From NCBI GenBank assembly GCA_003648635.1, contig QMPQ01000009.1:1-34061 (forward strand): a DNA stretch of 34,061 bases, in the 5' to 3' direction. Shown one piece after another: positions 4,924 through 32,994 of the stretch. A model generated the notes under the pieces. The model saw only the letters and a list, made by a program, of their open reading frames with translations. It had not been told where the DNA came from and ran no database searches. Each line of letters starts with the position of its first letter. The first letter of the stretch is position 1. Source of the stretch: Bacteroidota bacterium (GTDB taxonomy: Bacteria; Bacteroidota; Bacteroidia; Bacteroidales; GCA-2748055). The position numbers and the translations under genes are program-made.

Positions 4924-4953
4924 TGTAACTTTCCACCCCATACTTACGTCTTA
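4924..4953 (+). promoter_or_regulatory. ECF-sigma-type promoter of the barrel gene at 4980
   Basis: TGTAAC at 4924-4929 and CGTCTTA at 4947-4953 are separated by 17 bases to the CGTC. This is the -35 AAC / -10 CGTC form used by many ECF sigma factors. It lies in the 63-base gap before the barrel gene and predicts a leader of about 20-25 bases. The first ten bases, TGTAACTTTC, are identical to those of the motif upstream of the ECF sigma gene at 20028, and the -10 block CGTCTTA is also shared. Its use by that sigma factor is an inference. Confidence 0.65.
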
Positions 4954-4979
4954 CCACCAAATCAATAAAACCAGAACGA

Positions 4980-6023
4980 ATGAAGAAAATAATTTTACTA
5001 TTGATAGCATCTGCTATGTTGCTGCCAGTAAGAGCACAGCAGGTGGATAGCATACCGGAAGTCACAGCTGCTCCCGAGGTGGAAGAAGCTCCTGTTGTGG
5101 AAGAAGCTCCTGTTGTGGAAGAAGCTCCTGTTGTGGAAGAAGCTGATGTAGCTCCTGCCTATGCTGACACCGTCAATGTAGTAGGAGCAGTTGAGGTTAT
5201 AGAGACCCCCGAAAGTACAAGGGTAACACTTGGACAAAACGAAGTGTTTATTGTGGAAGAAAATGGTGATACAGTCAGGGTTGTCCTTGGTTCGCGTGGC
5301 ATTAGTATCGTAGAAGGAGAAAATGGCACTGAGATAAAAGTGATAGACATGGACGATTATCCACAGAAATCATACAGGCATAAGAAGAAAAGATTCAGAC
5401 CTCATTATGCTGGTATTGAGCTCGGACTGAGCAGCTATCTGACAGCCGATAACAGCCTGACACTCCCACCTGAAGATGCTTACATGGACCTGAATACTGG
5501 TCGATCCTATAACTTTGGTATCAATTTCGTGGATGTGGGAGTTGGTCTGGGTACGGATAAGATTGGACTGGTAACTGGAATGGGCTTCGAATATATCAAC
5601 TATAATTTTAATGGTCAGAACAGCATCCGAAAGGATGACATTACCGGTGCAATCGGGGAATATGTTCCTGATTATGCAGCGAATATCACCAAATCGAAAA
5701 TGACCATGTGGTACTTAACCGTACCCCTTCTTATCGAATTCCAGATACCTGCCGGAAGAAAAAGGGTGAATCTTTCAACTGGTGTGATAGGGGGTCTGAA
5801 GCTTTGTTCAAGAACCAAAATTAAATACAACAGTGCCGGGGGAAAGGCCAAAGAAGTGCTCAAAGGAGACTATAACCTTTATCCAGTGCGCTATGGATTT
5901 ACCGCCAGGGCTGGTTATGGATTCATGCACCTCTATGCAACTTACTATCCAACCTCCCTTTTCAAAAAGGACCTGGGACCTGTACTTTATCCCTTCCACA
6001 TCGGATTGTTTTTTGCCTTCTAA
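4980..6023 (+). CDS. Outer-membrane beta-barrel protein with Val-Glu-Pro repeat linker
   Basis: This 347-residue protein has a signal peptide (MKKIILLLIASAMLLPVRA). An acidic, proline-containing linker follows at about residues 25-60, made of tandem VEEAPV units, and then a region with IVEENGDTVRVVLG-type strands at about 70-125. A basic stretch (YRHKKKRFRPHYAG) leads into a C-terminal domain of alternating beta strands that starts GIELGLSSYL and ends in aromatic residues (HIGLFFAF), as in Bacteroidota outer-membrane barrels of the OMP_b-brl/PorT-like type. It probably sits in the outer membrane with its N-terminus in the periplasm. It has its own ECF-type promoter and is followed by a strong terminator, so it is a single-gene unit. 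The substrate or role is unknown. Confidence 0.75.
   Translation: MKKIILLLIASAMLLPVRAQQVDSIPEVTAAPEVEEAPVVEEAPVVEEAPVVEEADVAPAYADTVNVVGAVEVIETPESTRVTLGQNEVFIVEENGDTVRVVLGSRGISIVEGENGTEIKVIDMDDYPQKSYRHKKKRFRPHYAGIELGLSSYLTADNSLTLPPEDAYMDLNTGRSYNFGINFVDVGVGLGTDKIGLVTGMGFEYINYNFNGQNSIRKDDITGAIGEYVPDYAANITKSKMTMWYLTVPLLIEFQIPAGRKRVNLSTGVIGGLKLCSRTKIKYNSAGGKAKEVLKGDYNLYPVRYGFTARAGYGFMHLYATYYPTSLFKKDLGPVLYPFHIGLFFAF
5079..5150 (+). repeat. 18-bp tandem repeat coding for VEEAPV, four units
   Basis: Units start at 5079, 5097, 5115 and 5133. The first three are identical (GTGGAAGAAGCTCCTGTT) and the fourth diverges over its last bases. The period is a multiple of three, so copy-number change would lengthen or shorten the periplasmic linker of the barrel protein without shifting the frame. 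Confidence 0.9.
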
Positions 6024-6046
6024 AAACTTTACTCCAATACCGTCAG

Positions 6047-6088
6047 ACCGGCTATTCGTGGGATGTTCCCTGAATGGCCGGTTTTTTT
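6047..6088 (+). terminator. Rho-independent terminator after the barrel gene
   Basis: An 11-bp stem (ACCGGCTATTC at 6047-6057 with GAATGGCCGGT at 6072-6082, one G-T pair) has a 14-base loop and is followed directly by a run of seven T at 6082-6088. Confidence 0.85.
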
Positions 6089-6114
6089 ATGTTCAGGCGG
6101 CTTTATTAAAATAT

Positions 6115-6122
6115 TAACTTTG
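6115..6122 (+). promoter_or_regulatory. Bacteroidota-type -7 element upstream of pepE
   Basis: TAACTTTG at 6115-6122 matches the Bacteroidota housekeeping -7 consensus TAnnTTTG and lies 24 bases before the pepE start. The -33 element is not clear. The site follows the preceding terminator closely, which fits a new transcription unit for pepE, the AsmA-like gene and the kinase. Confidence 0.5.
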
Positions 6123-6146
6123 TAAGTAAACAATAAAAGACTTGCT

Positions 6147-6854
6147 ATGAGACTGCTCCTGATCAGTAATTCTACAAATGCAGGCGAAGCTTACCTGGAT
6201 TATCCCAAATACAACATTCGTGACTTCCTTGGAAGCCTTTCCCTCGATTGCTTATTCATTCCCTATGCCGGAGTAACCATCAGCTTTGACGATTATGAAG
6301 CACGTGTAAAGGAACGCTTTGCAGAAGTGGGGCACAGGATTACATCTGTCCACCATGCATCAGATCCCATCGCCGCTGTTCAATCCGCTGAAGCCATTGT
6401 GGTGGGTGGTGGAAATACTTTTCAGCTGATTAAAATGATTCAGGAGTTTGGTTTGATTAATCCGGTAAGAGAGAGGGTGCTTGGAGGCACGCCTTTTGTG
6501 GGCTGGAGTGCTGGAAGTAATGTATGCTGTCCCACCATCAGGACCACCAACGATATGCCAATCCTGGAGCCTGAGAGCTTCAATGCCTTCAATCTGATTC
6601 CTTTTCAGATCAATCCACACTACACCGATCTGAATCCCCCGGGACATGCCGGTGAAACCAGGGAGGACCGCATCATGGAATACCTGGCGGCCAATCCCGG
6701 AGATACGGTCCTTGGATTAAGGGAGGGATGTATGTTTACCGTGGAAGGAAAACAGATGAAATTGACCGGAGAACGGCCGGTACGCTTATTTAGATTCAAC
6801 CAGACTCCCATTGAACTAGACCAAAGTCACGACTTCAGCGAATTTCTGGAATAA
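6147..6854 (+). CDS. pepE: Dipeptidase E (peptidase S51)
   Basis: At 235 residues this matches the usual length of alpha-aspartyl dipeptidase PepE, a cytoplasmic serine peptidase that cleaves Asp-X dipeptides. The opening MRLLLISNSTNAGEAYLDY, the GGGNTFQLIKM segment and the nucleophile elbow GWSAGSNV with its catalytic Ser are characteristic, as is the downstream QINPHYTD region. There is no signal peptide. It is preceded by a TAnnTTTG element. Only 2 bases separate its stop from the AsmA-like start, so the two are probably translated from one message, although no functional link between them is evident. Confidence 0.95.
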   Translation: MRLLLISNSTNAGEAYLDYPKYNIRDFLGSLSLDCLFIPYAGVTISFDDYEARVKERFAEVGHRITSVHHASDPIAAVQSAEAIVVGGGNTFQLIKMIQEFGLINPVRERVLGGTPFVGWSAGSNVCCPTIRTTNDMPILEPESFNAFNLIPFQINPHYTDLNPPGHAGETREDRIMEYLAANPGDTVLGLREGCMFTVEGKQMKLTGERPVRLFRFNQTPIELDQSHDFSEFLE

Positions 6855-6856
6855 AG

Positions 6857-9499
6857 ATGAAGAAGAGGTTCAGGATCATACTTGAGTACCTGTCGGCTTT
6901 TGTGTTGATCGTCCTCCTGCTGCTGGCCATTGCCGGGGTGGTGGTGGTCAAATTCTATGGCGACGATCTCAAATCCTTTGTAATGGAGCAGATCAATCAC
7001 CGCCTCGACAGCAAAGTGGATGTGGATGAGATCACAGTCAAAGTATTCCAGAAATTTCCAAATACCTCTATCCAACTGAAGAATGTGACCATCTGGTCCA
7101 CACATAATTTCAATACACGGGGTTTTGATGGACCCGGAGCTGATACACTTCTAAGTGCAAAAAGCATCAATGTCAGTTTTAATCTCCTTGGACTGATCCG
7201 GAAAAAATACAATATCCGTCAGCTGGAAATTAAGGAAGGGACCTTGCACCTGTACACAGACCTTGAAGGAGAAGTAAACTACAAAATTTTTTCTGGTGCT
7301 GGCCGGAAGCAAAAAGAGGCCTCTCCGGTAAACCTGTCAAACCTTAGAATCACCGATTTTTCCCTGGTACTAAACAACCAGGTCAAGCAACTGTACTCTA
7401 CGGGAAACCTGAAACGTATCGACCTCAACGGTAGAATCTCTAAACGCAACACACAACTCAAAGGTGCATTGACCGGATGGCTTGGTGAGCTATCGAACAA
7501 AGAGATCCTATATGCCTCCAACAGAGAGATAGAAGCAGAACTGAACCTGGATGTCAAAGATTCCCTCTATACCATCAAATCGGGACAGCTTCAATTGGAT
7601 CGAATCGTAGCTGATATGGACGGTCATTTTGTTCTTCACCACGGGGAGGGTATAGAAATGGACCTCTTTGCTACTGCCAGGAATCTAGAGATACACGAGG
7701 TGCTTGACCTCTTACCCAGTGAAATAAGCAAGCCCCTGCTGGGAATCAGGGGAAACGGGATTCTTCAGCTTTACTCCAGAATCACGGGAATGGTCAGTTC
7801 AACCCTGACACCAAAAATTGAAGCAGATTTTCAAACTTCCAATGCGAATTTGTCCTGGGACATGCTTCCCTTTTCTGTCAAAAACCTGAACCTGAATGGG
7901 ACATATTCAAATGGAGGTGAATTTAATCCAGTGACTACTTCCCTGATCATTGAATCGCTCACTGCCGATGTTGGTAGCGACCACCTTTCCCTGAACGGTC
8001 GCATTCACAACTTTTACGACCCCGATTTTGCCTTTAAACTCAAGGGAGATATTCATCCTGAACAGTGGCTTCGTTGGTATGACCAGATTCCCCTGGATAA
8101 AGCAAGGGGGACAATCTATAGTGATATCAATGTTTCGGGTTCCTATGACAGGCTAAAACCGAAAGGCCAGAAATTTCTGGCTTTTGATTTTGCCGGCGGA
8201 CTCTCTCTGGAGGAAGTGATGTTCCGAATTCACAAAGATGATACTCCTTTCACCAATCTGAATGGCACAATTCATATTGAGAATGACTTCTGGGAACCTT
8301 CCCTTGCCGGATCATTTGGACAAAGTGATTTTACCTTTTCAGGTTCCGGTCTGAACCTGCTCTCTTACCTGATGAAAAATGATGAGCCTCTGGTGGCATC
8401 CGCCACAGTGCATGCTAATCAGATTGATCTTCAAGAGATTATGGATAGTTTTACACGGGCTGACAAGCAGCGGGATGGGGCCATTCTGTTTCCGGACAGA
8501 CTTAAGCTTAAACTGGACTTTGTGATCAATGATTTTACCATGCAGCGTTTTAATGCCAGTCATGTAAGAGGAGTGGCTACTTACGATTCGCCTGTTTTGA
8601 TGGTGGACTCCCTGACCATGCAGACTATGGATGGAACCCTGACAGGAGATTATAAAGTGGCACAGGACCAAATGGGAGACATCTTTGTCAACGTCAATTC
8701 AACACTCTACAACCTGGACATCAAAAGACTTTTTTATTCATTTAATAATTTCGGACAGGATCAAATTACTGATGAGCACTTAAAAGGGACCATTTCGGGC
8801 AAGTGCATGTTTTCAGCCGATTTTGATTCTACTTTCTCCATCAGAAAGGAGTCCATTCTCAGTGAAAATAGTGTCAGCATAAAAGAGGGTGAGCTAAACA
8901 GCTTCTCCCCAATTCTTGCGCTTTCCAGATTTATTGAAGTCGAGGAGCTAAAGAATATTCAGTTCGAAACCTTGGAAAACAACATCCTGATTAAGGAGGG
9001 CCAGGTAATCATCCCCTCCATGGAAATTCATACCAATGCGCTGAATATGTCAGTCTCTGGCATCCACGAATTCAACAATCACTATGACTACCGACTTAAG
9101 TTAAAATTATCTGAGTTATTATATAGCAAAGCACGAGGGGCCAGGAACAGTGAATTCATTATTGCCGAAGATGATTCCGATACCAGAGTTCTTTTTCTAA
9201 AGGTTTACAACGATGGCTCAGGAGCACAGGTGGAGAGGGACCGGGAAAAGACTGCAGAGAAGATTCGCAATGATTTGAACCAGGAAAAAATTGAGCTGAA
9301 GAAGATACTGAACGAAGAGCTTGGTCTATTTAAACGTGATACAACTATAGTTGAGGCTGAAGAGCCACAAAAAGATATCGAGGAATCCTTTACCTTTGAG
9401 TTTTCGGAAGAGCCCGACAGTACCAGTGAAGTGAAAACAAAAAGAGAAAAAGGGCGCTGGAGGAAGAAGAATCTTAAAAAAGATAGCACTCAGAATTAA
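6857..9499 (+). CDS. AsmA-like inner-membrane protein
   Basis: An 880-residue protein with one N-terminal membrane anchor at about residues 10-33 and a long periplasmic region of repeated beta-strand pairs (for example VDVDEITVKVFQKFPNTSIQLKN, and the segment ending GTLTGDYKV). This is the pattern of the AsmA/TamB/YicH group, now thought to form hydrophobic grooves that help move phospholipids between the membranes. The LxxLxxxxxxIRQLEIKEGTLHL segment near residue 115 is typical of the AsmA N-terminal domain. The last 110 residues are charged and coiled-coil-like, with a very basic end (KREKGRWRKKNLKKD), an unusual tail. It sits 2 bases after pepE and one base before the kinase start. The family call is firm; the lipid-transport role is inferred from the family. 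Confidence 0.85.
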   Translation: MKKRFRIILEYLSAFVLIVLLLLAIAGVVVVKFYGDDLKSFVMEQINHRLDSKVDVDEITVKVFQKFPNTSIQLKNVTIWSTHNFNTRGFDGPGADTLLSAKSINVSFNLLGLIRKKYNIRQLEIKEGTLHLYTDLEGEVNYKIFSGAGRKQKEASPVNLSNLRITDFSLVLNNQVKQLYSTGNLKRIDLNGRISKRNTQLKGALTGWLGELSNKEILYASNREIEAELNLDVKDSLYTIKSGQLQLDRIVADMDGHFVLHHGEGIEMDLFATARNLEIHEVLDLLPSEISKPLLGIRGNGILQLYSRITGMVSSTLTPKIEADFQTSNANLSWDMLPFSVKNLNLNGTYSNGGEFNPVTTSLIIESLTADVGSDHLSLNGRIHNFYDPDFAFKLKGDIHPEQWLRWYDQIPLDKARGTIYSDINVSGSYDRLKPKGQKFLAFDFAGGLSLEEVMFRIHKDDTPFTNLNGTIHIENDFWEPSLAGSFGQSDFTFSGSGLNLLSYLMKNDEPLVASATVHANQIDLQEIMDSFTRADKQRDGAILFPDRLKLKLDFVINDFTMQRFNASHVRGVATYDSPVLMVDSLTMQTMDGTLTGDYKVAQDQMGDIFVNVNSTLYNLDIKRLFYSFNNFGQDQITDEHLKGTISGKCMFSADFDSTFSIRKESILSENSVSIKEGELNSFSPILALSRFIEVEELKNIQFETLENNILIKEGQVIIPSMEIHTNALNMSVSGIHEFNNHYDYRLKLKLSELLYSKARGARNSEFIIAEDDSDTRVLFLKVYNDGSGAQVERDREKTAEKIRNDLNQEKIELKKILNEELGLFKRDTTIVEAEEPQKDIEESFTFEFSEEPDSTSEVKTKREKGRWRKKNLKKDSTQN

Positions 9500-9500
9500 C

Positions 9501-17802: not shown

Positions 17803-18396
17803 CTAAAACCATCCGAATTTAAAGCTAAGAAAGCCTGCCACGGCTGAGATATCACTATTTGTGTAACCATGCATACTCTCATCCATCATGGCATAAAAAT
17901 TATAGGAGACTCCAGCACCGAACCTGAAGTAGCGTGTAAGATTCGCCTCAAGTTCCACTGTAGGAGCCACAACAAAAATATTATCTCTTAAATAAGGATA
18001 AGAACCACCGCTTTGGGTGATCCCAAACTCCCCCCAACCAATCATTGATGAGAATGCGACATGTATTGGTTTATTTCCATAAAGGGAATACCCAAGCCAA
18101 AAACCTCCGTGGCCAAGGGTCAGATGATCAGAAGGATTATCGTTTACGTAATCTGGAATCGCATTGGATAAGCCCAGACCATAACCTCCAACAAAGAAAT
18201 TATCCAATAACACGGCACCGCCACCACCCATCATAAATCCAAATTCCCCGGCAACTGAAGTAAACTGCATAAAGGGTCCTCCCAAGCCAGAAATACGCAG
18301 GTCCTTATTATCCAGGATGGTCCGGTACTCTCTCTCCTGAGAGAAAACTATGGTGCCAATAGCCAGGATTAACAAAACAAAAATGGATTTCCTCAT
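17803..18396 (-). CDS. Small outer-membrane barrel protein of the ECF sigma operon
   Basis: This 197-residue protein starts at the ATG at 18396, giving a clear signal peptide (MRKSIFVLLILAIGTIVFSQ). The frame is open to an ATG at 18477, but that would add 27 residues in front of the signal peptide and overlap the anti-sigma gene. The mature part is glycine- and aromatic-rich with alternating strands (FGFMMGGGGAVLLD, FVVAPTVELEANLTRYFRFG) and ends FKFGWF, as in small 8-stranded outer-membrane barrels. It follows the anti-sigma gene by 64 bases and precedes a strong terminator, so it is probably the last gene of the sigma operon. It could report on, or be a target of, envelope stress. The exact role is unknown. 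Confidence 0.75.
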   Translation of the reverse strand: MRKSIFVLLILAIGTIVFSQEREYRTILDNKDLRISGLGGPFMQFTSVAGEFGFMMGGGGAVLLDNFFVGGYGLGLSNAIPDYVNDNPSDHLTLGHGGFWLGYSLYGNKPIHVAFSSMIGWGEFGITQSGGSYPYLRDNIFVVAPTVELEANLTRYFRFGAGVSYNFYAMMDESMHGYTNSDISAVAGFLSFKFGWF

Positions 18397-18460: not shown

Positions 18461-19540
18461 TTAATCTTCCCGAGCAAGCGGCCTGGTAAAAGAAAACCGT
18501 TTGGATTTCAGCTGAAACCCGGACACATCACCCTTATCATCCCGGGATGCCAAAAGTGAAATCTCTGATCCTGCAACCTTATTGATACCTTTGATACCTG
18601 CATTGGCGATACTCAACAAGGAAAAATCTTTCTCCTCTGTATAATCTTCAATCACCTCCTGCAGGTCAAGTTTGGAAATCTGAACAACAGACAGACTGCT
18701 TATATGGATCGGTACCGGAGGAACATGAAGGGGCTTGATCTGATCGGGAGTAGCCTCCACGGAAGCTGCTGGTTTAATAAACTGGGTTGCAGCCTGGGCT
18801 AAAACGCGTGGCTGTAAATCATCCGCTGGAACTCCAGCTGCTTCCGACTCAATCTCAAGGGGTCTATCATGGTCCTTTTTTATGGAGAACATAACAGGGT
18901 CTTTTACCTTAGTTTCAAGCATGGCCATCTGTGCCTCTGCTTGCGCAGGCACATCAGAGGCCTGCGTCGGAACATCATAAACTTGGGGTGAGACATCTTC
19001 CTGAGCTACCTGCTGGTTACTTTCCGGCCGACTTAGGTCCGGAGCTCTATTAAACAGAATAAACAACAATGCAACAGCAGCAGCAGCCGAAATCACACCC
19101 ATAGTAATGACCCTGATACTGGGCCTAAGTCTGCGTTTGAGCTGGTCTTTTCCATGGAATAATAAAGGCTCAGGCACCAGGCTGGTGTGCTGCCACTCCT
19201 CCCATTCCTGAACTTTAAGATCATCAGTTTCCAGCATGGCCTGATGTGCCGCAATCTGTTCTGCACTCAGATCACCTTCCAACCTTGCGATGGAGAATAG
19301 ATCGAAATTATGATCTTCCAGAATAGTTGAAGCAGTAGGTAGTTCCTTCTTTAAGAGCCTGCCATTCTGAAATTGCACCTTCTCACCTTCAAGGATCCAG
19401 GGTTCAATTTCCGTAAGCTCCCCGCTACAATCTGGATTCAGCAGGAGGAAATTATGCAATTCTTGCTGCTTATCAACAGATAAGGTTCCTTCGAGCTGGT
19501 CGAGCAGGTAAGCCTCATAATTATGTCTGTTAATTTCCAT
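18461..19540 (-). CDS. Membrane anti-sigma factor (candidate)
   Basis: A 359-residue protein starting 2 bases after the ECF sigma stop, so translationally coupled to it. It has no signal peptide. A cytoplasmic N-terminal part of about 140 residues is followed by one membrane helix (about 143-163) and a periplasmic part of about 195 residues, the usual anti-sigma layout. No zinc-binding His/Cys motif is visible. The N-terminal part contains two related segments about 71 residues apart: HNYEAYLLDQLEGTLS at residue 6 and HNFDLFSIARLEGDLS at residue 77. The periplasmic region is rich in Pro, Ala and Gln (VPTQASDVPAQAEAQ), probably a linker, followed by a conserved-looking C-terminal block. It should hold the sigma factor at the membrane until an envelope signal. 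The role rests on gene order and topology. Confidence 0.8.
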   Translation of the reverse strand: MEINRHNYEAYLLDQLEGTLSVDKQQELHNFLLLNPDCSGELTEIEPWILEGEKVQFQNGRLLKKELPTASTILEDHNFDLFSIARLEGDLSAEQIAAHQAMLETDDLKVQEWEEWQHTSLVPEPLLFHGKDQLKRRLRPSIRVITMGVISAAAAVALLFILFNRAPDLSRPESNQQVAQEDVSPQVYDVPTQASDVPAQAEAQMAMLETKVKDPVMFSIKKDHDRPLEIESEAAGVPADDLQPRVLAQAATQFIKPAASVEATPDQIKPLHVPPVPIHISSLSVVQISKLDLQEVIEDYTEEKDFSLLSIANAGIKGINKVAGSEISLLASRDDKGDVSGFQLKSKRFSFTRPLARED

Positions 19541-19542
19541 CT

Positions 19543-20028
19543 CTAGATCACTTTTTCCATGGTGCCTATATATGCTTTCAAATAGACTCTGGCCCGATAA
19601 ATGTACACTTTTACTTGTGCTTCAGAAAGTCCCGTGATCTCAACTATCTCTTTGTAAGAATAACCTTCATAATCACGTAACATCACCACTGCTTTCTGGT
19701 CTCCTGGTAAATTCTGAACAGCCCTTTCCAGCACCTCTCCCAGATCCGAATAATGATCTGTTCCTGACTCTTCGAATAAGGAAGCTGGGTCAACAAGCAC
19801 ATTCCTTTTCTCTTTTCTTATATAATCGATCATCGTATGATAGGCAGAAGTAAACAAGTAACTCTTTACTTTGAGGGCACTCACCTCTTCCAGTTTCATC
19901 CACAACTTTTCGAAGGTGTCCTGAATGATATCTTCTGCCATAGCAGCATTTTTCAGGTTCTTCAATATGAACCTGTAAAGATTGTCTGCATAAGCATCCA
20001 CAGCCTTGTTGTACTCCCTTACAGTCAT
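19543..20028 (-). CDS. ECF RNA polymerase sigma factor
   Basis: At 161 residues this has the normal ECF size. Region 2 includes DNLYRFILKNLKNAAMAEDIIQDTFEKLWMKL and KSYLFTSAYHTMIDYIRKEKR. Region 4 includes LPGDQKAVVMLRDYEGYSYKEIVEITGLSEAQVKVYIYRAR, with a clear helix-turn-helix. A short acidic linker joins the two regions. The promoter motif TGTAAC-16-CGTC lies 26-51 bases upstream of the start, which suggests autoregulation. The gene is the first of a three-gene unit with the anti-sigma and barrel genes, and is divergent from the TetR-type gene across 133 bases. The same promoter form occurs before the genes at 4980 and 32934, so these are candidate targets. Confidence 0.95.
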   Translation of the reverse strand: MTVREYNKAVDAYADNLYRFILKNLKNAAMAEDIIQDTFEKLWMKLEEVSALKVKSYLFTSAYHTMIDYIRKEKRNVLVDPASLFEESGTDHYSDLGEVLERAVQNLPGDQKAVVMLRDYEGYSYKEIVEITGLSEAQVKVYIYRARVYLKAYIGTMEKVI

Positions 20029-20053
20029 TAAATCAATCTGATTGCGTAAATAA

Positions 20054-20079
20054 GACGAAGTCTCTTCCTGAAAGTTACA
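20054..20079 (-). promoter_or_regulatory. ECF-sigma-type promoter of the sigma gene
   Basis: On the minus strand TGTAAC (20079-20074) and CGTC (20057-20054, within CGTCTTA) are separated by exactly 16 bases, as in known ECF promoters such as the B. subtilis SigX and SigW types. The distance to the sigma start codon (20028) fits a leader of about 20 bases. Confidence 0.7.
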
Positions 20080-20107: not shown

Positions 20108-20139
20108 TTGCATTTCATATCTGAATGATATTATCTTTG
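20108..20139 (+). promoter_or_regulatory. Bacteroidota housekeeping promoter of the TetR-type gene
   Basis: TATCTTTG at 20132-20139 matches the -7 consensus TAnnTTTG, and TTG at 20108-20110 (in AATTG) lies 21 bases upstream as a -33 element. The start codon at 20162 is 22 bases downstream. Confidence 0.65.
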
Positions 20140-20151
20140 ACCGAACGGTCA
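20138..20151 (+). promoter_or_regulatory. TetR-type operator overlapping the promoter
   Basis: TGACCG at 20138-20143 and CGGTCA at 20146-20151 form a perfect inverted repeat around AA. GACCG/CGGTC palindromes are a common operator form for TetR-family repressors. The repeat shares two bases with the -7 element and covers the expected transcription start, so a bound repressor would block its own gene and probably the exporter genes behind it. Confidence 0.7.
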
Positions 20152-25167: not shown

Positions 25168-25174
25168 GTCCCCA

Positions 25175-26889: not shown

Positions 26890-27338
26890 GAGCAGTTATT
26901 CAGAAAGTAACTCATGCTTCCATTATCATTGACCGGACCCTGACAAAGAAGATTGGTCCGGGGCTGGTTATCTTGCTGGGCATTGAAGAATCCGATGCCC
27001 CATCCGATATCGAATGGCTAAGTGGAAAAATTAGCCGACTGAGAATTTTTGATGATAAGGAGGGAATTATGAACCTCTCCATACAGGATGTGAAAGGCGA
27101 CATAATGATCATAAGCCAGTTTACCCTTCATGCAAGTACCAGGAAAGGCAATCGTCCGTCTTACATTAAAGCGGCTTCGCCAGAAACAGCGATCCCCCTG
27201 TATAAGGCATTTGTTAAGCAGATGCAACAGGACCTGGGTAAAGAAATTATTACTGGTGAATTTGGTGCCTATATGCAAGTGAACCTAAACAACGATGGAC
27301 CTGTTACCATAAGCATAGACACCAAAAACAGGGAATAA
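26886..27338 (+). CDS. dtd: D-aminoacyl-tRNA deacylase
   Basis: DTD removes D-amino acids, and glycine mischarged on tRNA-Ala, from tRNA. The 150 residues match the family length. The two active-site signatures are present: SQFTLHASTRKGNRPSY (SQxTL...KGxRPSF type) and NDGPVTI (the NxGPVT motif with the cross-subunit Gly-Pro). The opening MRAVIQKVTHASIIID is standard. It overlaps the response regulator by 4 bases and shares one base with the MazG-like start (TAATG). Confidence 0.97.
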   Translation: MRAVIQKVTHASIIIDRTLTKKIGPGLVILLGIEESDAPSDIEWLSGKISRLRIFDDKEGIMNLSIQDVKGDIMIISQFTLHASTRKGNRPSYIKAASPETAIPLYKAFVKQMQQDLGKEIITGEFGAYMQVNLNNDGPVTISIDTKNRE

Positions 27339-27685
27339 TGACCATAAAGGAAGCACAAGAAGCGGTAGACAAGTGGATATCCACCTATGGAGTCCGCTAT
27401 TTTAATGAGCTAACCAATATGGCCATCCTTACCGAGGAGGTGGGAGAGGTAGCAAGGATTATAGCCCGCACTTACGGGGAACAATCGAAAGGAAGAGCCG
27501 ATATAGAGACAGAGAACCTGGCCGATGAACTATCCGATGTAATGTTTGTCCTGGTCTGTCTGGCAAACCAGACTGGGATAGATCTGGAGCAAGCCTTCCA
27601 AAAAAATCTACAGAAAAAAACGTCCCGGGATTTTGAACGTCATCAACAAAATGATAAATTGAGGTACCCAAGACCCCGAACATGA
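27338..27685 (+). CDS. MazG-like nucleotide pyrophosphohydrolase
   Basis: A 115-residue all-helical protein of the MazG-like/dUTPase-2 superfamily, which hydrolyses nucleoside triphosphates to monophosphates and pyrophosphate, often as house-cleaning enzymes. The magnesium-binding motif is visible as Glu33-Glu34-x-x-Glu37 (TEEVGEV) and Asp63-Glu64-x-x-Asp67 (ADELSDVMF). It has a single MazG unit, unlike the two-domain MazG of enterobacteria. It overlaps deoC by 4 bases. The preferred nucleotide is unknown. Confidence 0.9.
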   Translation: MTIKEAQEAVDKWISTYGVRYFNELTNMAILTEEVGEVARIIARTYGEQSKGRADIETENLADELSDVMFVLVCLANQTGIDLEQAFQKNLQKKTSRDFERHQQNDKLRYPRPRT

Positions 27686-28554
27686 AAATCCTGTCCGATT
27701 TTGAATTGTCTGTAGATCCGGATGAAGTAAACTTACATCTGGAAAAATCAGCAGCAAGTATACCGCCTGGCAGCAATAAGGAGTTGTTAAAGCAGATTTT
27801 TGGTCTGATCGATCTCACCACCCTGAGTGAACAGGACAATATTGAAAATGTATCTCTGTTGTGTGACAGGGTGAACCAGCAGGTGGACGCATACCCGGAT
27901 ATGCCTTCCGTTGCTGCGATCTGTATCTACCCTGAACTGGTGGCTGTTGTTAAAGAAAAACTGGACAATCCCTTGATAAGTATTGCTTCGGTAGGAGGCG
28001 GGTTCCCTGCATCCCAAACCTTCACCAATATCAAGGTCATGGAGATAGAACAGGCCATCATACAAGGTGCCGAAGAGATTGATATTGTTATGCCGGTTGG
28101 CAAATTCCTGATAGACGATCTTGAATATGTGGATTACGAGATCCAGGTCATAAAACAACGTATAGGATCGGTTCACCTGAAGGTTATCCTGGAAACAGGG
28201 AGCCTGAAAGATCTATCCCACATTCGCAAAGCCTCCCTGCTTTCCATCGGTGCGGGTGCCGATTTTATCAAGACCTCCACAGGGAAGATTTCTCCCGGAG
28301 CTACTCCCGAGGCAATGGTAGTCATGTGCTGTGCCATCAGGGATTATTACAACCGTACGGGAAAGAAAATCGGAATCAAACCTGCAGGTGGAATTTCTGA
28401 CACCCGCACAGCGCTACTTTATTATCACATTGTAAAGGAAATTCTGGGCGAAGAGTGGCTCAACCGGGAACGGTTCAGAATTGGCGCAAGTAGGCTTGCA
28501 AACCGGATTTTAGGCGAATATTTTGACCAAGGGCCTGATTTTGGGTATTTCTGA
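27682..28554 (+). CDS. deoC: Deoxyribose-phosphate aldolase
   Basis: DeoC splits 2-deoxyribose-5-phosphate into glyceraldehyde-3-phosphate and acetaldehyde. The Schiff-base Lys197 is in DFIKTSTGK, the second active-site Lys is in GIKPAGGISD, and the catalytic Asp is in EEIDIVMPVGKF. The SVGGGFPASQT segment is also typical. At 290 residues it is longer than the common 220-260-residue forms because of about 50 extra N-terminal residues (LSVDPDEVNLHLEKSAAS), as seen in other Bacteroidota. It is the last gene of the overlapping dtd, MazG-like, deoC series. Confidence 0.96.
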   Translation: MKILSDFELSVDPDEVNLHLEKSAASIPPGSNKELLKQIFGLIDLTTLSEQDNIENVSLLCDRVNQQVDAYPDMPSVAAICIYPELVAVVKEKLDNPLISIASVGGGFPASQTFTNIKVMEIEQAIIQGAEEIDIVMPVGKFLIDDLEYVDYEIQVIKQRIGSVHLKVILETGSLKDLSHIRKASLLSIGAGADFIKTSTGKISPGATPEAMVVMCCAIRDYYNRTGKKIGIKPAGGISDTRTALLYYHIVKEILGEEWLNRERFRIGASRLANRILGEYFDQGPDFGYF

Positions 28555-28578
28555 CAATGTTTGGTAGGATGAATTCCG

Positions 28579-28586
28579 TATATTTG
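28579..28586 (+). promoter_or_regulatory. Candidate -7 element in the deoC downstream region
   Basis: TATATTTG at 28579-28586 matches TAnnTTTG. A TTTG at 28560-28563 could serve as -33, but the 15-base spacing is shorter than usual. There is no open reading frame behind it on the plus strand before a terminator-like stem, so it would drive a short non-coding transcript. Confidence 0.4.
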
Positions 28587-28591
28587 TTAAA

Positions 28592-28703
28592 TAGAATTGA
28601 CGTTCTTACAAATACTGATAGCGGTTCGATATAAATTCCATTCTCATAGAGACGGGTTGAATTCCATGGCTTTTTTTCTTCAATATCGGACCGCTATTTT
28701 TTT
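28592..28703 (+). ncRNA. Candidate small RNA between deoC and the TPR gene
   Basis: A transcript from the TATATTTG element would be about 110 bases and contain a closing stem of 15 pairs (ATAGCGGTTCGATAT at 28618-28632 with ATATCGGACCGCTAT at 28683-28697, one G-U). Inside lies a second stem AATTC/GAATT (28634-28638 and 28659-28663), topped by TCTC/GAGA (28642-28645 and 28649-28652). An unpaired 3' side of about 19 bases is rich in pyrimidines. It ends in a T run. A closing stem, a wide bulge and a top hairpin recall 6S-type RNAs, but I cannot assign a family. It could also be just an unusual terminator of deoC. Confidence 0.35.
28618..28703 (+). terminator. Terminator-like stem with T run after deoC
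   Basis: The 15-bp stem described in the small-RNA entry is followed by seven T at 28697-28703. The 50-base loop is long for a simple terminator. The stop codon of the convergent TPR gene lies inside the T run. Confidence 0.6.
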
Positions 28704-30930
28704 ATTTCATTAAACGGTAGTGAAGATAATCGAGCATCAGGGGAATATCCTTCTGATTGATTCCGTTTTCGACCAGTATGGACCGGTCATCTTGCATGGT
28801 CTTCAGAAAATCCTCCATTTCAAAATTCAGGTCCCTTAAGGATTGGACATATAGCTCCACAGCATCTCTCTTATTGCCCAGGGCCCACTGCAAGTGTCCA
28901 TAATTGATATAGTCGTAATACCCGGGCTTCCCATCAAATATCCTCGTAAAATACTTGTCAGCTTTTTTAAGCTCCCCCAATGCAAAGTAGCACCAGGCAA
29001 TGGGCCGTAGTATATGTGGATTTCCGGGGTTCAGATATTCAATTTTAAAATAGTTCTTCAGGGCAGTGTCGTAAGAGCCAAGTTTCAGATGACAAAATCC
29101 GATCAGTGATTCGATGGTCTGATCATCGGGCTGCAGTACCGAAGCTTTTTCATATACCTCCAGAGCGTCCTTGTACTCCCCATATTTTCGATAACATATG
29201 CCCAGATTCTTCAGGGTCCAAAGATTTAGTTCCCCGCTTAAGCCGATTCGCTGGTAAAAGCCAACAGCCTCCCGGAAATTCCCCATTTTCTGCAAACAAT
29301 AGCCTGCTTTCTCCAGCAGTTCCCTGTCATTGGCCTGCTTCTCCAGCAACATCTGAAAAATATCGAGCGCTTCCTCAAAATGGTCCTTCTCAAAAAGATA
29401 CTCAGCAATGTTCCTGGTGATGGAATCGTCTTCAACAAGTTGTGCAAAGAAGTCGGATCGGTACAGATCCAGTTTCCCCCCGAAAACATCTTCAAATTCA
29501 TTCTTAAAAGGAGAAATCTTAAAGAAGCGGTATAGATCCTGGATGTACTGGATAAATACTGTTCTTGTTGTAAAATCGCCCGAAGTCAGCTTTTCGTCTT
29601 CCAGCATCTCCTGCATACCCTCCATCTCCATTAAGAAGGCGGTGGAAAGCATCTTTTTCTGTTCCTCAGGCAGAAATCGCAGGTTGAAGATAAAACTGTA
29701 CTTATCACTGTTGCAGAGAAAGGGCGTTTTCTTCAGTCCGTCAACGAATATATCAGGATCAAAAGTGTCGGTTCGTGAAGCATAAATCTCCTCCAGATCT
29801 GGATTTTCCTTATGAAAGGGAACCAACCAGTTGGTCAGTTCATTGAAAAAGGGGAATTGTTTCAGGTGGGCAAAGGTGGTCATATAGACATCGGCCCCCT
29901 CCATCTGTAATTTCATAAACTCATCCACCTTCCTGTAAAGATCATCCGATTCACTGAACATGGACTCCCAATCAGGGTTCCTTCCCTCCTCCAGCAATTC
30001 CTCCCGGATATCATCCATCTTCAGCTTGTCCTCCAACTTAGGCTTGAGCTTGGCCATTTCGGGCATCAGATCCTCCTGCAGCTTCCTGCCGATCTCCAGG
30101 GTATCCCTGGTCCGGATCAGCTGCAAAGCAATTTTTTCAAGGTTCTGCGCCAGATTCAGTTCTTCATTAATTAGCTTCAGGCGGTGAATGATATTGGGGT
30201 AAAATTCTACCCTCTTATCGTATTGATAAAGCAGAATGACCAATGCCACCAGCGCTCTGGCTGAAACTTCCTGATCCTCTTCCCCGGCAAAATCGATGAG
30301 GCGGTGAACCTTATCTTCATCCCAGTATCTTAATCCTGAAAGCAGGATGCCACTGATGTAAAGCGCCTTCTCATGCCATAGAAAATCCCGGCAGGAAATA
30401 ATAGCAGCCGAGAGGCTATTCTCAGCTTCACTATAGCGATTGCTTAACCAGAGATGCCTGAAGATTTCGGCCGACAGCTTCCGGCGCCGCTCATCATCAG
30501 CTTCAGGAGATACCCTTCCCTCGTCAATCATTTCATCCAGCTCTCTTTTAAAGCTCAGATCATCCATGGTCTCAATCACCCGTATTCCGGTCAGTTCCTG
30601 CTGCCGGTCCACTTCCCGCTTTAAAATATAAGTATGCCATCCGGAATGATTATCCATCAGGCGGTCCTTCACCCTGTCGGCCAGTTCCAGAATGGAGGTC
30701 AATAATTTATGATAAACCTTGTCACGCTCAGGATCCTGAACGCCTTCCAGCATATAGTTGAGCATCTGTTCATAGGTATGCTCCAGGTGCTCCTGCTGAA
30801 TAAAAAAGTCACTATACCCCGATTCAGCCACCATCTTTTTGAGCACGTCCAGGGCATCCTTCACCCTTCTGGTCGAGACCAGGTGACAGAGCTGTTTATA
30901 CAGCTTCTTTATTTTGCTGACATTAATCAT
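28702..30930 (-). CDS. Tetratricopeptide-repeat protein
   Basis: A 742-residue cytoplasmic protein with no signal peptide or membrane helix. The C-terminal third shows successive TPR units (ALDIFQMLLEKQANDRELLE, then LKNLGICYRKYGEYKDALEV, then IGFCHLKLGSYDTALKNYFK, then AWCYFALGELKKADKYFTRI). The N-terminal two thirds are helical and acidic without a recognised motif. TPR domains bind protein partners; no enzyme activity is indicated. The gene starts 79 bases after the DsrE-like stop, with a weak GATATTTG promoter-like element on the minus strand at about 30956-30963. It may be expressed separately from the upstream operon. Confidence 0.85.
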   Translation of the reverse strand: MINVSKIKKLYKQLCHLVSTRRVKDALDVLKKMVAESGYSDFFIQQEHLEHTYEQMLNYMLEGVQDPERDKVYHKLLTSILELADRVKDRLMDNHSGWHTYILKREVDRQQELTGIRVIETMDDLSFKRELDEMIDEGRVSPEADDERRRKLSAEIFRHLWLSNRYSEAENSLSAAIISCRDFLWHEKALYISGILLSGLRYWDEDKVHRLIDFAGEEDQEVSARALVALVILLYQYDKRVEFYPNIIHRLKLINEELNLAQNLEKIALQLIRTRDTLEIGRKLQEDLMPEMAKLKPKLEDKLKMDDIREELLEEGRNPDWESMFSESDDLYRKVDEFMKLQMEGADVYMTTFAHLKQFPFFNELTNWLVPFHKENPDLEEIYASRTDTFDPDIFVDGLKKTPFLCNSDKYSFIFNLRFLPEEQKKMLSTAFLMEMEGMQEMLEDEKLTSGDFTTRTVFIQYIQDLYRFFKISPFKNEFEDVFGGKLDLYRSDFFAQLVEDDSITRNIAEYLFEKDHFEEALDIFQMLLEKQANDRELLEKAGYCLQKMGNFREAVGFYQRIGLSGELNLWTLKNLGICYRKYGEYKDALEVYEKASVLQPDDQTIESLIGFCHLKLGSYDTALKNYFKIEYLNPGNPHILRPIAWCYFALGELKKADKYFTRIFDGKPGYYDYINYGHLQWALGNKRDAVELYVQSLRDLNFEMEDFLKTMQDDRSILVENGINQKDIPLMLDYLHYRLMK

Positions 30931-31009
30931 CTACTTGAGATTTCAGCATATTGTCCAAATATCAAGCCATGGGTTCCAGACAGACAGAATGGCAGATAGG
31001 GTCGGGTTC

Positions 31010-31444
31010 CTAATAGGTAAGAACGTGGTATCCACTCTTCAAATAATTGCTAAGAGGGACGCCCATCCCTTTCACATCGATCCCCAGAGCCTTTAGCTCA
31101 TCGGTAACACCAAGCATGTTGGAACAGGATATACAGGCCTCCAGGATCACACCATCTTTGATCATGACCTTCACCTTTTCCTGAAGATCCTCATTTTCGG
31201 CCAGCAGCCTGGAGGATGAACCCCAGACAATTAGCACCACTTCATCAAACCATCCGTTTCGTTGGGCTGCATGTGTATACATCAGGCACGATTTTTCAGC
31301 CACATCAGGGTCACCTGACACCCATAATACAGCCAGCTTCTCTTTTTTAGTCTCCATATCCTGTGCTTTAACTTCCAATGGAAGAATCATCAGCATACAA
31401 GTTAAGACAAAGAGATGAATGGAAATAAGTTCTAGTCTAAGCAT
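31010..31444 (-). CDS. Periplasmic DsrE-family protein
   Basis: A 144-residue protein with a signal peptide (about 1-27, ending LEVKAQ). The mature part fits the DsrE/DsrF-like fold: KLAVLWVSGDPDVAEKSCLMYTHAA, the strand EVVLIVWGSSSRLLAEN, KVKVMIKDGVILEACISCSNMLGV with two Cys, and the terminal GVPLSNYLKSGYHVLTY. DsrE relatives handle persulfide sulfur or interact with thiol carriers; exported forms are common in Bacteroidota but poorly characterised. It lies 17 bases after the carboxypeptidase-regulatory-domain gene and is the third gene behind an ECF-type promoter. Confidence 0.85.
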   Translation of the reverse strand: MLRLELISIHLFVLTCMLMILPLEVKAQDMETKKEKLAVLWVSGDPDVAEKSCLMYTHAAQRNGWFDEVVLIVWGSSSRLLAENEDLQEKVKVMIKDGVILEACISCSNMLGVTDELKALGIDVKGMGVPLSNYLKSGYHVLTY

Positions 31445-31461
31445 ATATCAATCTTTGGTTT

Positions 31462-32445
31462 CTAATCTGGAGAGTATTCATATGGCAGCCAGTCAGCGAT
31501 CCGCGCCATCGACATATAACCGTACCACACGATGGCTTCTGGTTCGAAGAAGCCATCCCTGGCAAAATACACACTCGGGGCCCGAAAGGAAACAGTAGTC
31601 AGATGGTAATCGTAAGCGATTTCAAGGTTTCTGGGGTAGGTAAAATACTTATTCCCCTGAACATCTATATGCACAAAATCAGTATAGTCCAGTGGGACGA
31701 TACCTTCCACCTCCTGCAATCTGAATCCTTCCCTTGAAAGCTTATTTAACCAGAGTGCGCTAAAAAAATGACTGCACGAACCCTTGTAAGTCTTTTTCCG
31801 CCTTCCAGCATACTCCTTTCTGCTTTGTCCTTCGGCAGCCAAATCCATGTTGAAAACGATGTTTCCGGAGAAGGAAGTTGTTTTATGCACTTTGTCAAAT
31901 TCAAACTTATCCAGGTAGTAGGTAAGCTGGTAGCCCAGTGCATTGTTGAGGATCACCAGCGGCTCACGGGCAATAGCTTTAAGTGTGTCACGATTTGTGT
32001 GGTAATTGAATGTTACGACTTCCTCATTCATGATTATACATTCCTTGGCATTCCTGCTACGCCCTAAAAATTCATCCTTAAAAGTCTTCATGCAACGTTC
32101 TCTCTCTTTGGTCAAGGATTTGGACTCAATGGATACTTCTACGATCTCATATACGGCCTTTTTCAGGTTTACTTCATAATATTTCCCTGCTATTAAAGAA
32201 CTCAAAGCTTTACTACGATAACCTACAGCGCTAATTTGAAGCGCCCGGTTGACCTGTGATGTCACATCCAATTCAAACTCACCATTGGCATTGGTGCTGG
32301 TTCCCAGAAAGGTCCCGTTAATGTATACAGACGCATAATCCACAGGCTTTTTCGTTTCATGGTCCAGAACCCTGCCACGAACTACCTGGCCGAAAATAAG
32401 AAGTGGAATAGTGGAGAGAAGCAATAGCAGAAGTAGTTTCTTCAT
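31462..32445 (-). CDS. Carboxypeptidase-regulatory-like domain protein
   Basis: I chose the ATG at 32445, giving 327 residues and a clean signal peptide (MKKLLLLLLLSTIPLLIFGQ). An upstream ATG at 32460 would add only five residues. Residues about 20-100 form a CarboxypepD_reg-like beta sandwich: VVRGRVLDHETKKPVDYASVYINGTFLGTSTNANGEFEL, then LQISAVGYRSKAL. This is the same N-terminal domain as in many SusC/TonB-dependent proteins, but no barrel or plug follows. The remaining 220 residues are mixed alpha/beta with charged segments and resemble other Bacteroidota proteins of unknown function. Location is probably periplasmic or surface-associated. It is the middle gene of the DUF4395-DsrE operon. 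Confidence 0.85.
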   Translation of the reverse strand: MKKLLLLLLLSTIPLLIFGQVVRGRVLDHETKKPVDYASVYINGTFLGTSTNANGEFELDVTSQVNRALQISAVGYRSKALSSLIAGKYYEVNLKKAVYEIVEVSIESKSLTKERERCMKTFKDEFLGRSRNAKECIIMNEEVVTFNYHTNRDTLKAIAREPLVILNNALGYQLTYYLDKFEFDKVHKTTSFSGNIVFNMDLAAEGQSRKEYAGRRKKTYKGSCSHFFSALWLNKLSREGFRLQEVEGIVPLDYTDFVHIDVQGNKYFTYPRNLEIAYDYHLTTVSFRAPSVYFARDGFFEPEAIVWYGYMSMARIADWLPYEYSPD

Positions 32446-32475
32446 ATTCAAAACTACCATTTTCTCCCAAACAAA

Positions 32476-32934
32476 TCAATCCTGGTTTTTCCTGACCAGG
32501 GGATAAACCACTATAGTATATAACCAGCAACCCATGCAGAAATTTAGTCCGCACTCCAGGAATGCAAACAGTACCAGTACACTACCGGAAATATATGCCA
32601 GTAAAGGAAAATGCAGCAGTGCCCCAAGTGTGGTGATCGTTGTAATAATAAAACCAATCCTTGCAGCAAACATTTTTGGAGCTTTATCAATTAAAACCGC
32701 TTTAGTACCTATAAGCTTAACAAACAGGTGAGCCAGGTAGCTCAAAGGACTGTAGCTTAGTTTAGTAAATGCTCTGATAAAAAAGTCAACCACCAGCAGG
32801 GCAGGAAAGAGTGCAATTCCTGTTACAAAATATGCACCCATCATAAAAACCACACCCAGGGCAGTAACCCTGACCCGATTTTCATCCACGCGCTCCGGGG
32901 ATACCGGACATATAAGTTGTGTAACTAATTTCAT
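32476..32934 (-). CDS. DUF4395 membrane protein
   Basis: A 152-residue inner-membrane protein. It opens ICPVSPERVDENRVRVTALGVV, the standard start of DUF4395, and has about four membrane helices: GVVFMMGAYFVTGIALFPAL, a second after LLVVDFFIR, ARIGFIITTITTLGALLHFP and SVLVLFAFLECGLNFCMGCWLY. The final FLECGLNFCMGCWLY carries three Cys near the membrane face, which suggests thiol or disulfide chemistry. DUF4395 genes often neighbour rhodanese, thioredoxin-like or DsrE genes, and here a DsrE gene is two genes downstream. It is the first gene behind the ECF-type promoter at 32969-32994. Confidence 0.88.
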   Translation of the reverse strand: MKLVTQLICPVSPERVDENRVRVTALGVVFMMGAYFVTGIALFPALLVVDFFIRAFTKLSYSPLSYLAHLFVKLIGTKAVLIDKAPKMFAARIGFIITTITTLGALLHFPLLAYISGSVLVLFAFLECGLNFCMGCWLYTIVVYPLVRKNQD

Positions 32935-32968
32935 GTCCTCATTTTTTTATTGCTATTGTACATCATTA

Positions 32969-32994
32969 GACGATGGAGTGCAACAATCCTTACA
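32969..32994 (-). promoter_or_regulatory. ECF-sigma-type promoter of the DUF4395 operon
   Basis: On the minus strand TGTAAG (32994-32989) and CGTC (32972-32969, in CGTCTAA) are separated by exactly 16 bases, the same spacing as before the ECF sigma gene. The start codon at 32934 is about 35 bases downstream of the -10 element. The rest of the 156-base intergenic stretch (32935-33090), which also carries the start region of the plus-strand gene at 33091, shows no other clear signal. Confidence 0.6.

What the first reader, a model, noticed from the sequence alone, without database searches (positions are those of the whole stretch)
4924..32994. Three matching ECF promoters suggest a dispersed envelope regulon
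TGTAAC-17-CGTCTTA precedes the barrel gene at 4980, TGTAAC-16-CGTCTTA precedes the ECF sigma gene at 20028, and TGTAAG-16-CGTCTAA precedes the DUF4395-DsrE operon at 32934. All three are intergenic, correctly oriented and at promoter distance from the start codon. The first two also share TGTAACTTTC. Other TGTAAC copies that I saw lie inside genes and lack a correctly spaced CGTC. The predicted targets are two outer-membrane barrels, a Cys-rich membrane protein and an exported DsrE protein, which suggests an envelope or thiol stress response.
Basis: partly seen in the sequence, partly recalled or inferred. Interest (0 to 1): 0.7.

Follow-up and report, generated by a model that had tools for sequence, protein, structure and literature searches.

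The report
Two sigma-factor regulons, not one
Of three look-alike gene switches in a Bacteroidales-like genome, two are a conserved pair that a stress-type sigma factor appears to use for its own operon and for an outer-membrane barrel protein, while the third seems to belong to a different, thiol- and metal-stress-type sigma factor.

Summary
The three sites exist exactly as described, but they fall into two conserved promoter classes.

Class A, TGTAACTT-N14/15-CGTC, precedes the sigma gene (ECF-A, window 20028) in 22 of 22 family orthologs and, with one TGTAACAT exception, the 4980 barrel gene in 22 of 22 family genomes that have it. Outside the family 67 of 70 homologs keep TGTAAC...CGTC, and in 41 of 70 the barrel gene lies downstream of sigma/anti-sigma. 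Sites 1 and 2 are very probably one small ECF-A regulon: its own operon plus the barrel.

Class B, TGTAAGG-N15-CGTC, precedes the DUF4395-DsrE operon (site 3; exact in 10 of 19 orthologs) and the hvfA metallophore gene behind a second sigma, ECF-B, on another contig (exact in 9 of 14 loci). Site 3 fits the published neisserial sigma-E consensus, though no other class B site fetched fits it fully. Site 3 is probably an ECF-B target.

Motif counts alone are not enriched; placement and conservation carry the case. No transcription was measured.

The parts
4924..4953 (+). Site 1, class A promoter TGTAACTTTC...CGTCTTA (N17), before the barrel gene
   Evidence: conserved in 22 of 22 family genomes with the barrel gene, plus two more cut by contig ends
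4980..6023 (+). Outer-membrane beta-barrel protein, 347 aa (Pfam OMP_b-brl_2), class A target
6147..6854 (+). Peptidase S51 (PepE-like) gene; synteny marker of the sigma/anti-sigma/barrel/pepE cluster
   Evidence: Pfam Peptidase_S51; a homolog lies downstream of the barrel in 15 of 80 sigma-homolog loci
20051..20079 (-). Site 2, class A promoter TGTAACTTTC...CGTCTTA (N16), before the sigma gene
   Evidence: 22 of 22 family orthologs; 67 of 70 named homologs outside the window's genus
19543..20028 (-). ECF sigma factor ECF-A, 161 aa (Sigma70_r2 and Sigma70_r4_2)
18461..19540 (-). Probable membrane anti-sigma factor, 359 aa: helical N-terminal part, membrane helix 142-164, low-confidence stretch about 170-280, C-terminal alpha/beta part 285-359
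   Evidence: AF2 model; RsiW among weak Foldseek matches; homolog beside the sigma gene in 74 of 80 loci at E <= 1e-6
17803..18396 (-). Third gene of the sigma operon: 197 aa protein with a probable signal peptide, modelled with eight strands (low confidence)
   Evidence: found in 20 of 102 loci examined, all of the window's genus
32966..32994 (-). Site 3, class B promoter TGTAAGGATT...CGTCTAA; fits the neisserial sigma-E consensus
32476..32934 (-). DUF4395 membrane protein, 152 aa, class B target
31462..32460 (-). CarboxypepD_reg-like protein, second gene of the DUF4395 operon in this window
   Evidence: not detected beside the 18 other DUF4395 relatives, within 1.5 kb
31010..31444 (-). DsrE-like protein with a probable signal peptide, third gene of the operon
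   Evidence: found near 8 of the 15 other DUF4395 orthologs of at least 45% identity, within 1.5 kb

Best explanation
The window holds promoters of two ECF sigma factors. ECF-A (19543-20028) recognises TGTAACTT-N14/15-CGTC. When released from its membrane anti-sigma factor (18461-19540), it transcribes its own operon (sigma, anti-sigma, barrel 17803) from site 2 and, from site 1, the separate barrel gene at 4980, whose relatives in many other Bacteroidota sit behind the anti-sigma gene. This is a very small autoregulated regulon centred on outer-membrane barrels. Site 3 is not part of it: it is a TGTAAGG-type promoter read by another sigma, most likely ECF-B on contig C51 (RpoE2/SigE-like, with a small Cys-rich anti-sigma), which also serves the hvfA metallophore operon. 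Shown here: motif positions, conservation, separation of the two classes, synteny. Inferred: which sigma binds which class, the anti-sigma function, and the inducing signals.
For: Class A: 22 of 22 family ECF-A orthologs and 22 of 22 family genomes with the barrel gene (in G002 through the N-terminal piece L115 on another contig; G019 reads TGTAACATT). G006 and G013 also have the site before a barrel start cut by a contig end. In 28 genomes TGTAACTT-N14/15-CGTC has 57 matches, 43 of them these two promoters (one search read). Named homologs: 77 of 80 have TGTAA-N14..19-CGTC within 200 bp upstream, all 77 reading TGTAAC; ten of the 80 (L135-L144) have the contig lengths of family genomes already counted, so the independent figure is 67 of 70. 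A barrel-4980 homolog lies downstream of the anti-sigma gene in 41 of those 70 and pepE in 15; 26 of the 41 barrels have their own site within 450 bp upstream. Class B: DUF4395 10 of 19 exact; hvfA 9 of 14 exact, 5 of 14 with a changed -10. Matrices separate all 68 sites. Site 3 fits GTMAGBWTT-N12-CGTCTAAH. ECF-B has the genome's best TIGR02943 score, 149 bits against 54 for the next. HiRpoE2 controls the doxX cluster (PMC7907618), and HvfA/HvfB/DUF2063/DoxX genes follow ECF-B in G010.
Against: No transcript data. Pattern totals are not above the reversed controls: 57 against 58 for class A and 59 against 130 for TGTAAGG-N15/16-CGTC; only GTAAGGW...CGTCNAA exceeds its control, 39 against 20 (totals), and 13 of those 39 lie inside the ECF-B gene. 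The genome holds 17 ECF-like matches, and the TGTAAC/CGTC core also stands before another sigma gene (L031), so the core alone assigns no sigma. 15 of 41 named barrels show no own site. The full neisserial consensus (N12) is met in 4 of 314 loci, all copies of site 3: no hvfA or other DUF4395 site held meets it. ECF-B is below the TIGR02943 cut-off (149 of 162 bits), its anti-sigma below its model's cut-off (46.7 of 50), and its own gene has no class B site upstream. The hvfA site of the window's genome is imperfect (TGTAAGA, CGAC). G002 and G012 have the DUF4395 site but no ECF-B found (incomplete genomes); G009 has a 48-residue ECF-B fragment but no site. Association of ECF-B with an exact site: p = 0.035, or 0.019 with variants (counts entered by hand).
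Confidence: 0.8

Rival explanations
1. One dispersed regulon: ECF-A reads all three sites and tolerates TGTAAGG.
For: Shared TGTAA core, near-equal spacing, same CGTC block, all within one 34 kb contig.
Against: The sixth base and the TT or G extension are nearly fixed within each class, with no crossover in the 68 sites listed; class B recurs before hvfA next to ECF-B; site 3 fits another sigma's published consensus.
Confidence: 0.08
2. Sites 1 and 2 are real but are read mainly by another ECF sigma of the genome, with ECF-A a target rather than the reader.
For: At least one other sigma gene (L031) has TGTAAC...CGTC before its start; the genome has 17 ECF-like matches.
Against: The site tracks the ECF-A gene in 22 of 22 family members and 67 of 70 others; ECF sigma factors with an adjacent anti-sigma are often autoregulated (recalled); 43 of 57 strict class A matches in the family are these two genes.
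Confidence: 0.1
3. Site 3 is a class B promoter, but its sigma is not ECF-B.
For: Site present in G002 and G012 without a detected ECF-B; weak association test; no other class B site held meets the full neisserial consensus.
Against: hvfA, directly behind ECF-B and its anti-sigma, has the same promoter class; the published relatives with an hvf/doxX target use a similar consensus.
Confidence: 0.22
4. Chance similarity of short motifs.
For: Counts of the patterns do not exceed the reversed controls.
Against: Conservation before the same genes with variable spacer sequence, and placement: 8 of 15 against 0 of 12, or 5 of 12 without the window sites.
Confidence: 0.02

Closest known systems
[quoted passage not shown] PMC13088901, abstract, sections 3, 6, 7 and passages read; the Dma1 paper itself is not held)
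   Same: Bacteroidota ECF sigma with adjacent anti-sigma made of an N-terminal domain, a membrane helix and a long stretch without structure; das2 and its neighbours are among the most induced genes when dma2 is lost; an outer-membrane barrel is part of the module.
   Different: Here the anti-sigma has no fused barrel; it ends in a 75-residue alpha/beta part, and the barrels are separate genes (17803, and 4980 about 13 kb away with its own promoter). ECF21 membership was not tested.
Neisseria sigma-E / Haemophilus RpoE2 regulon (PMC2893595: section 11 and passages; PMC7907618: section 29 and passages)
   Same: Site 3 fits the -35, a 12-base spacer and the -10 of the published consensus; ECF-B is followed by a small Cys-rich protein and, in G010, by hvfA, hvfB, DUF2063 and DoxX genes.
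   Different: Another phylum; other class B sites do not meet the full consensus; DUF4395-DsrE is not named in the passages I read; ECF-B has no class B site before its own gene; msrAB was not looked for.
SM6 promoters of Flavobacterium psychrophilum (PMC9723704, passages read)
   Same: CGT -10 box in Bacteroidota, before genes that include a sigma/anti-sigma pair.
   Different: Several targets there are type IX secretion genes; no TGTAACTT extension or barrel pair appears in the passages I saw.
Bacillus ECF promoters of SigX, SigM and SigV (recalled, no call)
   Same: AAC-type -35 and CGTC or CGAC -10 with 16-17 bp spacing.
   Different: Other phylum, other -35 extension, unrelated targets.

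Membership tests
ECF (group IV) sigma factor, for ECF-A | Sigma70 regions 2 and 4 in a protein of about 160-200 aa | tested here: met
   Pfam Sigma70_r2 and Sigma70_r4_2 in 161 aa
ECF (group IV) sigma factor, for ECF-A | Adjacent anti-sigma gene | tested here: inconclusive
   A homolog of the 359 aa protein stands beside the sigma gene in 74 of 80 loci and its model is anti-sigma-like, but no family model names it and its function was not tested
ECF (group IV) sigma factor, for ECF-A | Own promoter with AAC -35 and CGTC -10 | tested here: met
   sequence only, no transcription test
Das/Dma (ECF21) system | Anti-sigma with N-terminal domain, one membrane helix, long disordered tether | tested here: met
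   AF2 model from 36 sequences, mean pLDDT 73: helices 8-134, helix 142-164, mean pLDDT 45-58 over 171-280; model only
Das/Dma (ECF21) system | C-terminal beta-barrel in the same polypeptide | tested here: not met
   C-terminal part is three helices and three strands; barrels are separate genes
Das/Dma (ECF21) system | Sigma belongs to ECF21 | not testable with these tools
   No ECF-group models held; NCBIfam best were sigma_PG0214/GFO_1088 and SigM, both below cut-off
Neisserial sigma-E / RpoE2 regulon, for site 3 | Promoter GTMAGBWTT-N12/13-CGTCTAAH | tested here: met
   one match in the window, at site 3, with N12 (N13 not run); consensus from PMC2893595. The rest of class B does not meet it in full
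Neisserial sigma-E / RpoE2 type, for ECF-B | TIGR02943-type sigma | tested here: inconclusive
   149-150 bits, cut-off 162; that TIGR02943 covers RpoE2 is recalled
Neisserial sigma-E / RpoE2 type, for ECF-B | Small Cys-rich anti-sigma | tested here: inconclusive
   102 aa protein, NCBIfam antisigmaE 46.7 bits, cut-off 50
Neisserial sigma-E / RpoE2 type, for ECF-B | hvf/doxX cluster as target | tested here: met
   In G005 HvfB family 382 of 360 bits, HvfA 27.6 of 95 bits; in G010 MbnB_TglH_ChrH, DUF2063 and DoxX over their Pfam cut-offs; presence and promoter only, control not tested
Neisserial sigma-E / RpoE2 type, for ECF-B | msrAB among the targets | not tested
   no search made

The most novel reading that the evidence does not exclude
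The ECF-A locus is a split form of the Dma relay: the anti-sigma carries a tether that crosses the periplasm and ends in a small domain which docks on separately encoded outer-membrane barrels (4980 and 17803) instead of being fused to one. ECF-A then makes exactly the barrels its anti-sigma monitors, so barrel supply itself closes the loop. Dma proteins would be fusions of this older sigma / anti-sigma / barrel cluster.
Probability: 0.3. Interest if true: 0.7.

Novelty: new variant of a known kind. Interest (0 to 1): 0.5.

Why it matters
The work gives two testable promoter codes for Bacteroidota ECF sigma factors, a phylum for which the papers read here state few. It links a conserved sigma / anti-sigma / outer-membrane-barrel cluster to a barrel gene that stands 13 kb away under the same promoter. 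It places the uncharacterised DUF4395-DsrE operon beside the hvf metallophore system, under a promoter that matches a published consensus from another phylum. Cultured relatives (Maribellus, Sunxiuqinia, Mariniphaga, Tangfeifania) carry the sigma / anti-sigma / barrel cluster, so the outer-membrane sensing idea can be tested.

Tried and rejected
Rejected: a single regulon for all three sites. Raw counting as a test: class A and class B patterns do not exceed their reversed controls (15 against 30; 57 against 58; 59 against 130); the early pattern likewise (18 against 29). The shuffle value as a significance test, because the pattern was taken from the sites. The Fisher value printed, because the sites are related and partly chosen by the motif. 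Foldseek against the PDB gave nothing at E <= 0.001 for either model: RsiW (5wuq, probability 0.54-0.57) and small outer-membrane barrels (NspA, OmpA, OmpW, OmpX) are hints only; the barrel model has mean pLDDT 54. The Dma1 paper (PMC10927553) is not held. Literature: searches for a printed TGTAAC/CGTC motif in Bacteroidetes ECF promoters, ECF21, TGTAAGG, DUF4395/DsrE with sigma factors and a promoter inside a sigma gene before an anti-sigma gene showed no paper in the part of the listing displayed that states the present result; displayed only the top of longer lists, and most subscription papers are not in that library.

Rows dropped or handled: L101 and L115 are two pieces of the barrel gene of G002, and L100 and L114 of G015; each pair was counted as one genome. 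L055 holds only residues 1-84 of the sigma gene. Ten of the 80 named loci (L135-L144) have the contig lengths of family genomes and were taken out of the figures for 70. In the matrices, 9 of 19 DUF4395 genes without an exact site were left out. DUF4395 matches at 30-33% identity (G018, G019, G021) count in the 19 but not in the 16. G009 was counted there as lacking ECF-B in spite of a 48-residue fragment. L247 lacks a recognised hvfA start; its site is. The L256 hvfA site was read by eye, with a spacer one base longer. The anti-sigma alignment used 35 of the 70 homologs extracted, plus the window's.
Full report
What the sequence shows. They are intergenic, point at their genes and end 22-31 bp before the start codons. 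The window is the whole of contig C9 of a 4.13 Mb genome in 416 contigs (contig length). The closest named relative of its sigma gene is in a metagenome-assembled genome titled Bacteroidales.

Chance. The pattern's shuffle value (0.00) is not usable, since the pattern came from the sites. The looser TGTAA-N14..19-CGTC has 4 matches in the window against 0.65 expected. Over the genome TGTAAS-N16/17-CGTC has 15 matches, fewer than the reversed pattern (30), so count alone says nothing. Position does: 8 of 15 lie between genes with a start within 60 bp, and 0 of 12 at two control spacings (p = 0.003); without the three window sites 5 of 12 (p = 0.037).

Class A. ECF-A has an ortholog at E <= 1e-40 in 22 of 28 family genomes (one of them, L055, is cut by a contig end). 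All 22 carry TGTAACTT(T/A)...CGTC starting 49-53 bp before the ATG, with differing spacers. The barrel gene 4980 is found in 22 of 28, and all 22 have TGTAAC-N16/17-CGTC upstream (21 read TGTAACTT, G019 reads TGTAACATT; G002 through a piece on another contig). Two more genomes have the site before a barrel start that runs off the contig (G006, with 11 residues left, and G013). TGTAACTT-N14/15-CGTC occurs 57 times in the 28 genomes against 58 for the reversed pattern, but 43 of the 57 are these two promoters (one search compared; totals). Among 80 named homologs 77 have the core within 200 bp upstream, all reading TGTAAC; two of the other three have CGTT in place of CGTC.

Linkage. In 41 of the 70 a relative of barrel 4980 lies downstream of the anti-sigma gene, as the next gene in most of the loci laid out but not in L149 and L154; 15 of the 70 also carry pepE further on. 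In the window the pepE-like gene (Peptidase_S51) follows barrel 4980 directly. Of the 41 barrels, 26 have a site of their own within 450 bp upstream and 15 do not. In the family both genes lie on one contig in 13 genomes: in 11 they are 11-14 kb apart, in 2 (G021, G022) about 1.3 kb. That the compact order is the older one is inference. The window's operon has another barrel-like gene (17803) in that place, seen in 20 of 102 loci, all of its genus.

Anti-sigma and barrel 17803. The anti-sigma model (36 sequences, mean pLDDT 73) has a helical N-terminal part, one membrane helix (142-164), a long low-confidence stretch and a folded C-terminal part (285-359). Foldseek gave no significant match; RsiW is among the weak ones. 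Barrel 17803 has no Pfam match at its cut-off; its model has eight strands but low confidence (pLDDT 54), with weak matches to NspA, OmpA, OmpW and OmpX.

Class B. DUF4395 relatives were found in 19 of 28 genomes. TGTAAGG-N15-CGTC is exact before 10 of 19; G023 and G026 have a changed -10, G025 has the -35 without a clear -10, and the other six have none. The same class stands before hvfA, the gene after ECF-B and its small anti-sigma: 9 of 14 loci exact and 5 of 14 with a changed -10, the window's own genome among the latter with a changed -35 as well. In G005 NCBIfam names the hvfA product weakly (HvfA 27.6 of 95 bits; KCGExKCG domain 25.1 of 19.5) and the next gene firmly (HvfB family, 382 of 360 bits). 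In G010 DUF2063 and DoxX genes follow. As a pattern, TGTAAGG-N15/16-CGTC is not enriched (59 matches, reversed 130); the tighter GTAAGGW...CGTCNAA is (39 against 20), but 13 of the 39 lie inside ECF-B genes. Leave-one-out matrices place all 44 class A and all 24 class B sites in their own class; relatives of each left-out site remain in its matrix, and genes without a site were not in the set.

Link to published work. PMC2893595 (section 11 read) gives the neisserial sigma-E consensus as GTMAGBWTT, spacer 12-13, CGTCTAAH. Site 3 fits it at every position with 12 bases and is the only such match in the window. Among the 314 loci held then, only the four copies of site 3 match, so the other class B sites share the GTAAGG and CGTC cores, not the whole consensus. 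PMC7907618 (section 29 read) reports that the doxX cluster with its COG3220 gene depends on RpoE2 in Haemophilus. ECF-B is the genome's best match to TIGR02943, though below the cut-off. That these are relatives is inference from promoter core, anti-sigma and cluster together.

Mechanism. Shown: positions, conservation, class separation, synteny. Inferred: ECF-A reads class A, ECF-B reads class B, the 359 aa protein holds ECF-A, and the signals come from the outer membrane for A and from thiol or metal stress for B. PMC13088901 (abstract, sections 3, 6, 7 and passages read) describes Dma anti-sigma factors with the same order of parts and a fused C-terminal barrel. Here the barrel is not fused, so this is not filed as a Dma; it may work like one.

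Results against. The core motif is shared by another sigma gene of the genome (L031). 15 of 41 named barrels have no site found. G002 and G012 have class B sites but no ECF-B found. G009 has an ECF-B fragment but no site. The association test is weak (p = 0.035 or 0.019). Counts are not enriched. No transcript was measured.

A by-product. Inside the ECF-B gene, about 70-80 bp before the anti-sigma start, codons of region 4 spell TGTAAGGA...CGTC in 13 of 14 genes (in G008 a CAG codon breaks it). In the 14 aligned genes the third bases at three motif codons never vary, although one codon changes amino acid (CCG, TCG, GCG). Only 1 of 40 four-fold columns and 6 of 80 two-fold columns of the sigma and anti-sigma genes are invariant, and three of these seven belong to the motif. 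This suggests selection for a promoter inside the sigma gene that feeds its anti-sigma. It lies outside the window and needs 5'-end mapping.

Noticed in passing
L321:617-645 (G000 contig C51:18116-18144) and the same place in 13 further ECF-B genes: A class B promoter sequence inside the ECF-B gene, in region 4 codons, about 70-80 bp before the anti-sigma start (exact in 13 of 14 genes); third bases at three motif codons are invariant in 14 of 14 genes while spacer third bases vary. Possible dual-coding promoter for the anti-sigma.
   Followed up: partly
window 20138-20151: Inverted repeat TGACCG-AA-CGGTCA between the ECF-A and TetR genes, with similar repeats upstream of many of the genus orthologs (seen by eye); perhaps the TetR operator.
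   Followed up: no
L031:1501-1526 (G000 contig C145): Another ECF sigma gene with TGTAACGTTTTC...CGTCTTA ending about 8 bp before its ATG, followed by a 130 aa gene that may be its anti-sigma: the TGTAAC/CGTC core is shared by more than one sigma gene.
   Followed up: no
L019 and L024 (G000 contigs C6 and C24): TGTAACAAG...CGTCTTA before a 167 aa protein and TGTAACATTT...CGTCTTT before a 233 aa protein, both at promoter distance; possible targets of other ECF sigma factors.
   Followed up: no
L219 (G008), L242 (G012), L237 (G006), L241 (G011): Class B sites before a thioredoxin-like protein (G008, G012) and before a 484 aa protein (G006, G011); possible further members of the ECF-B regulon.
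   Followed up: no
L127 and L255 (genome G023): Both the DUF4395 and the hvfA promoter of this genome have A as first -10 base (AGTC, AGAC), as if sigma and promoters had changed together.
   Followed up: no
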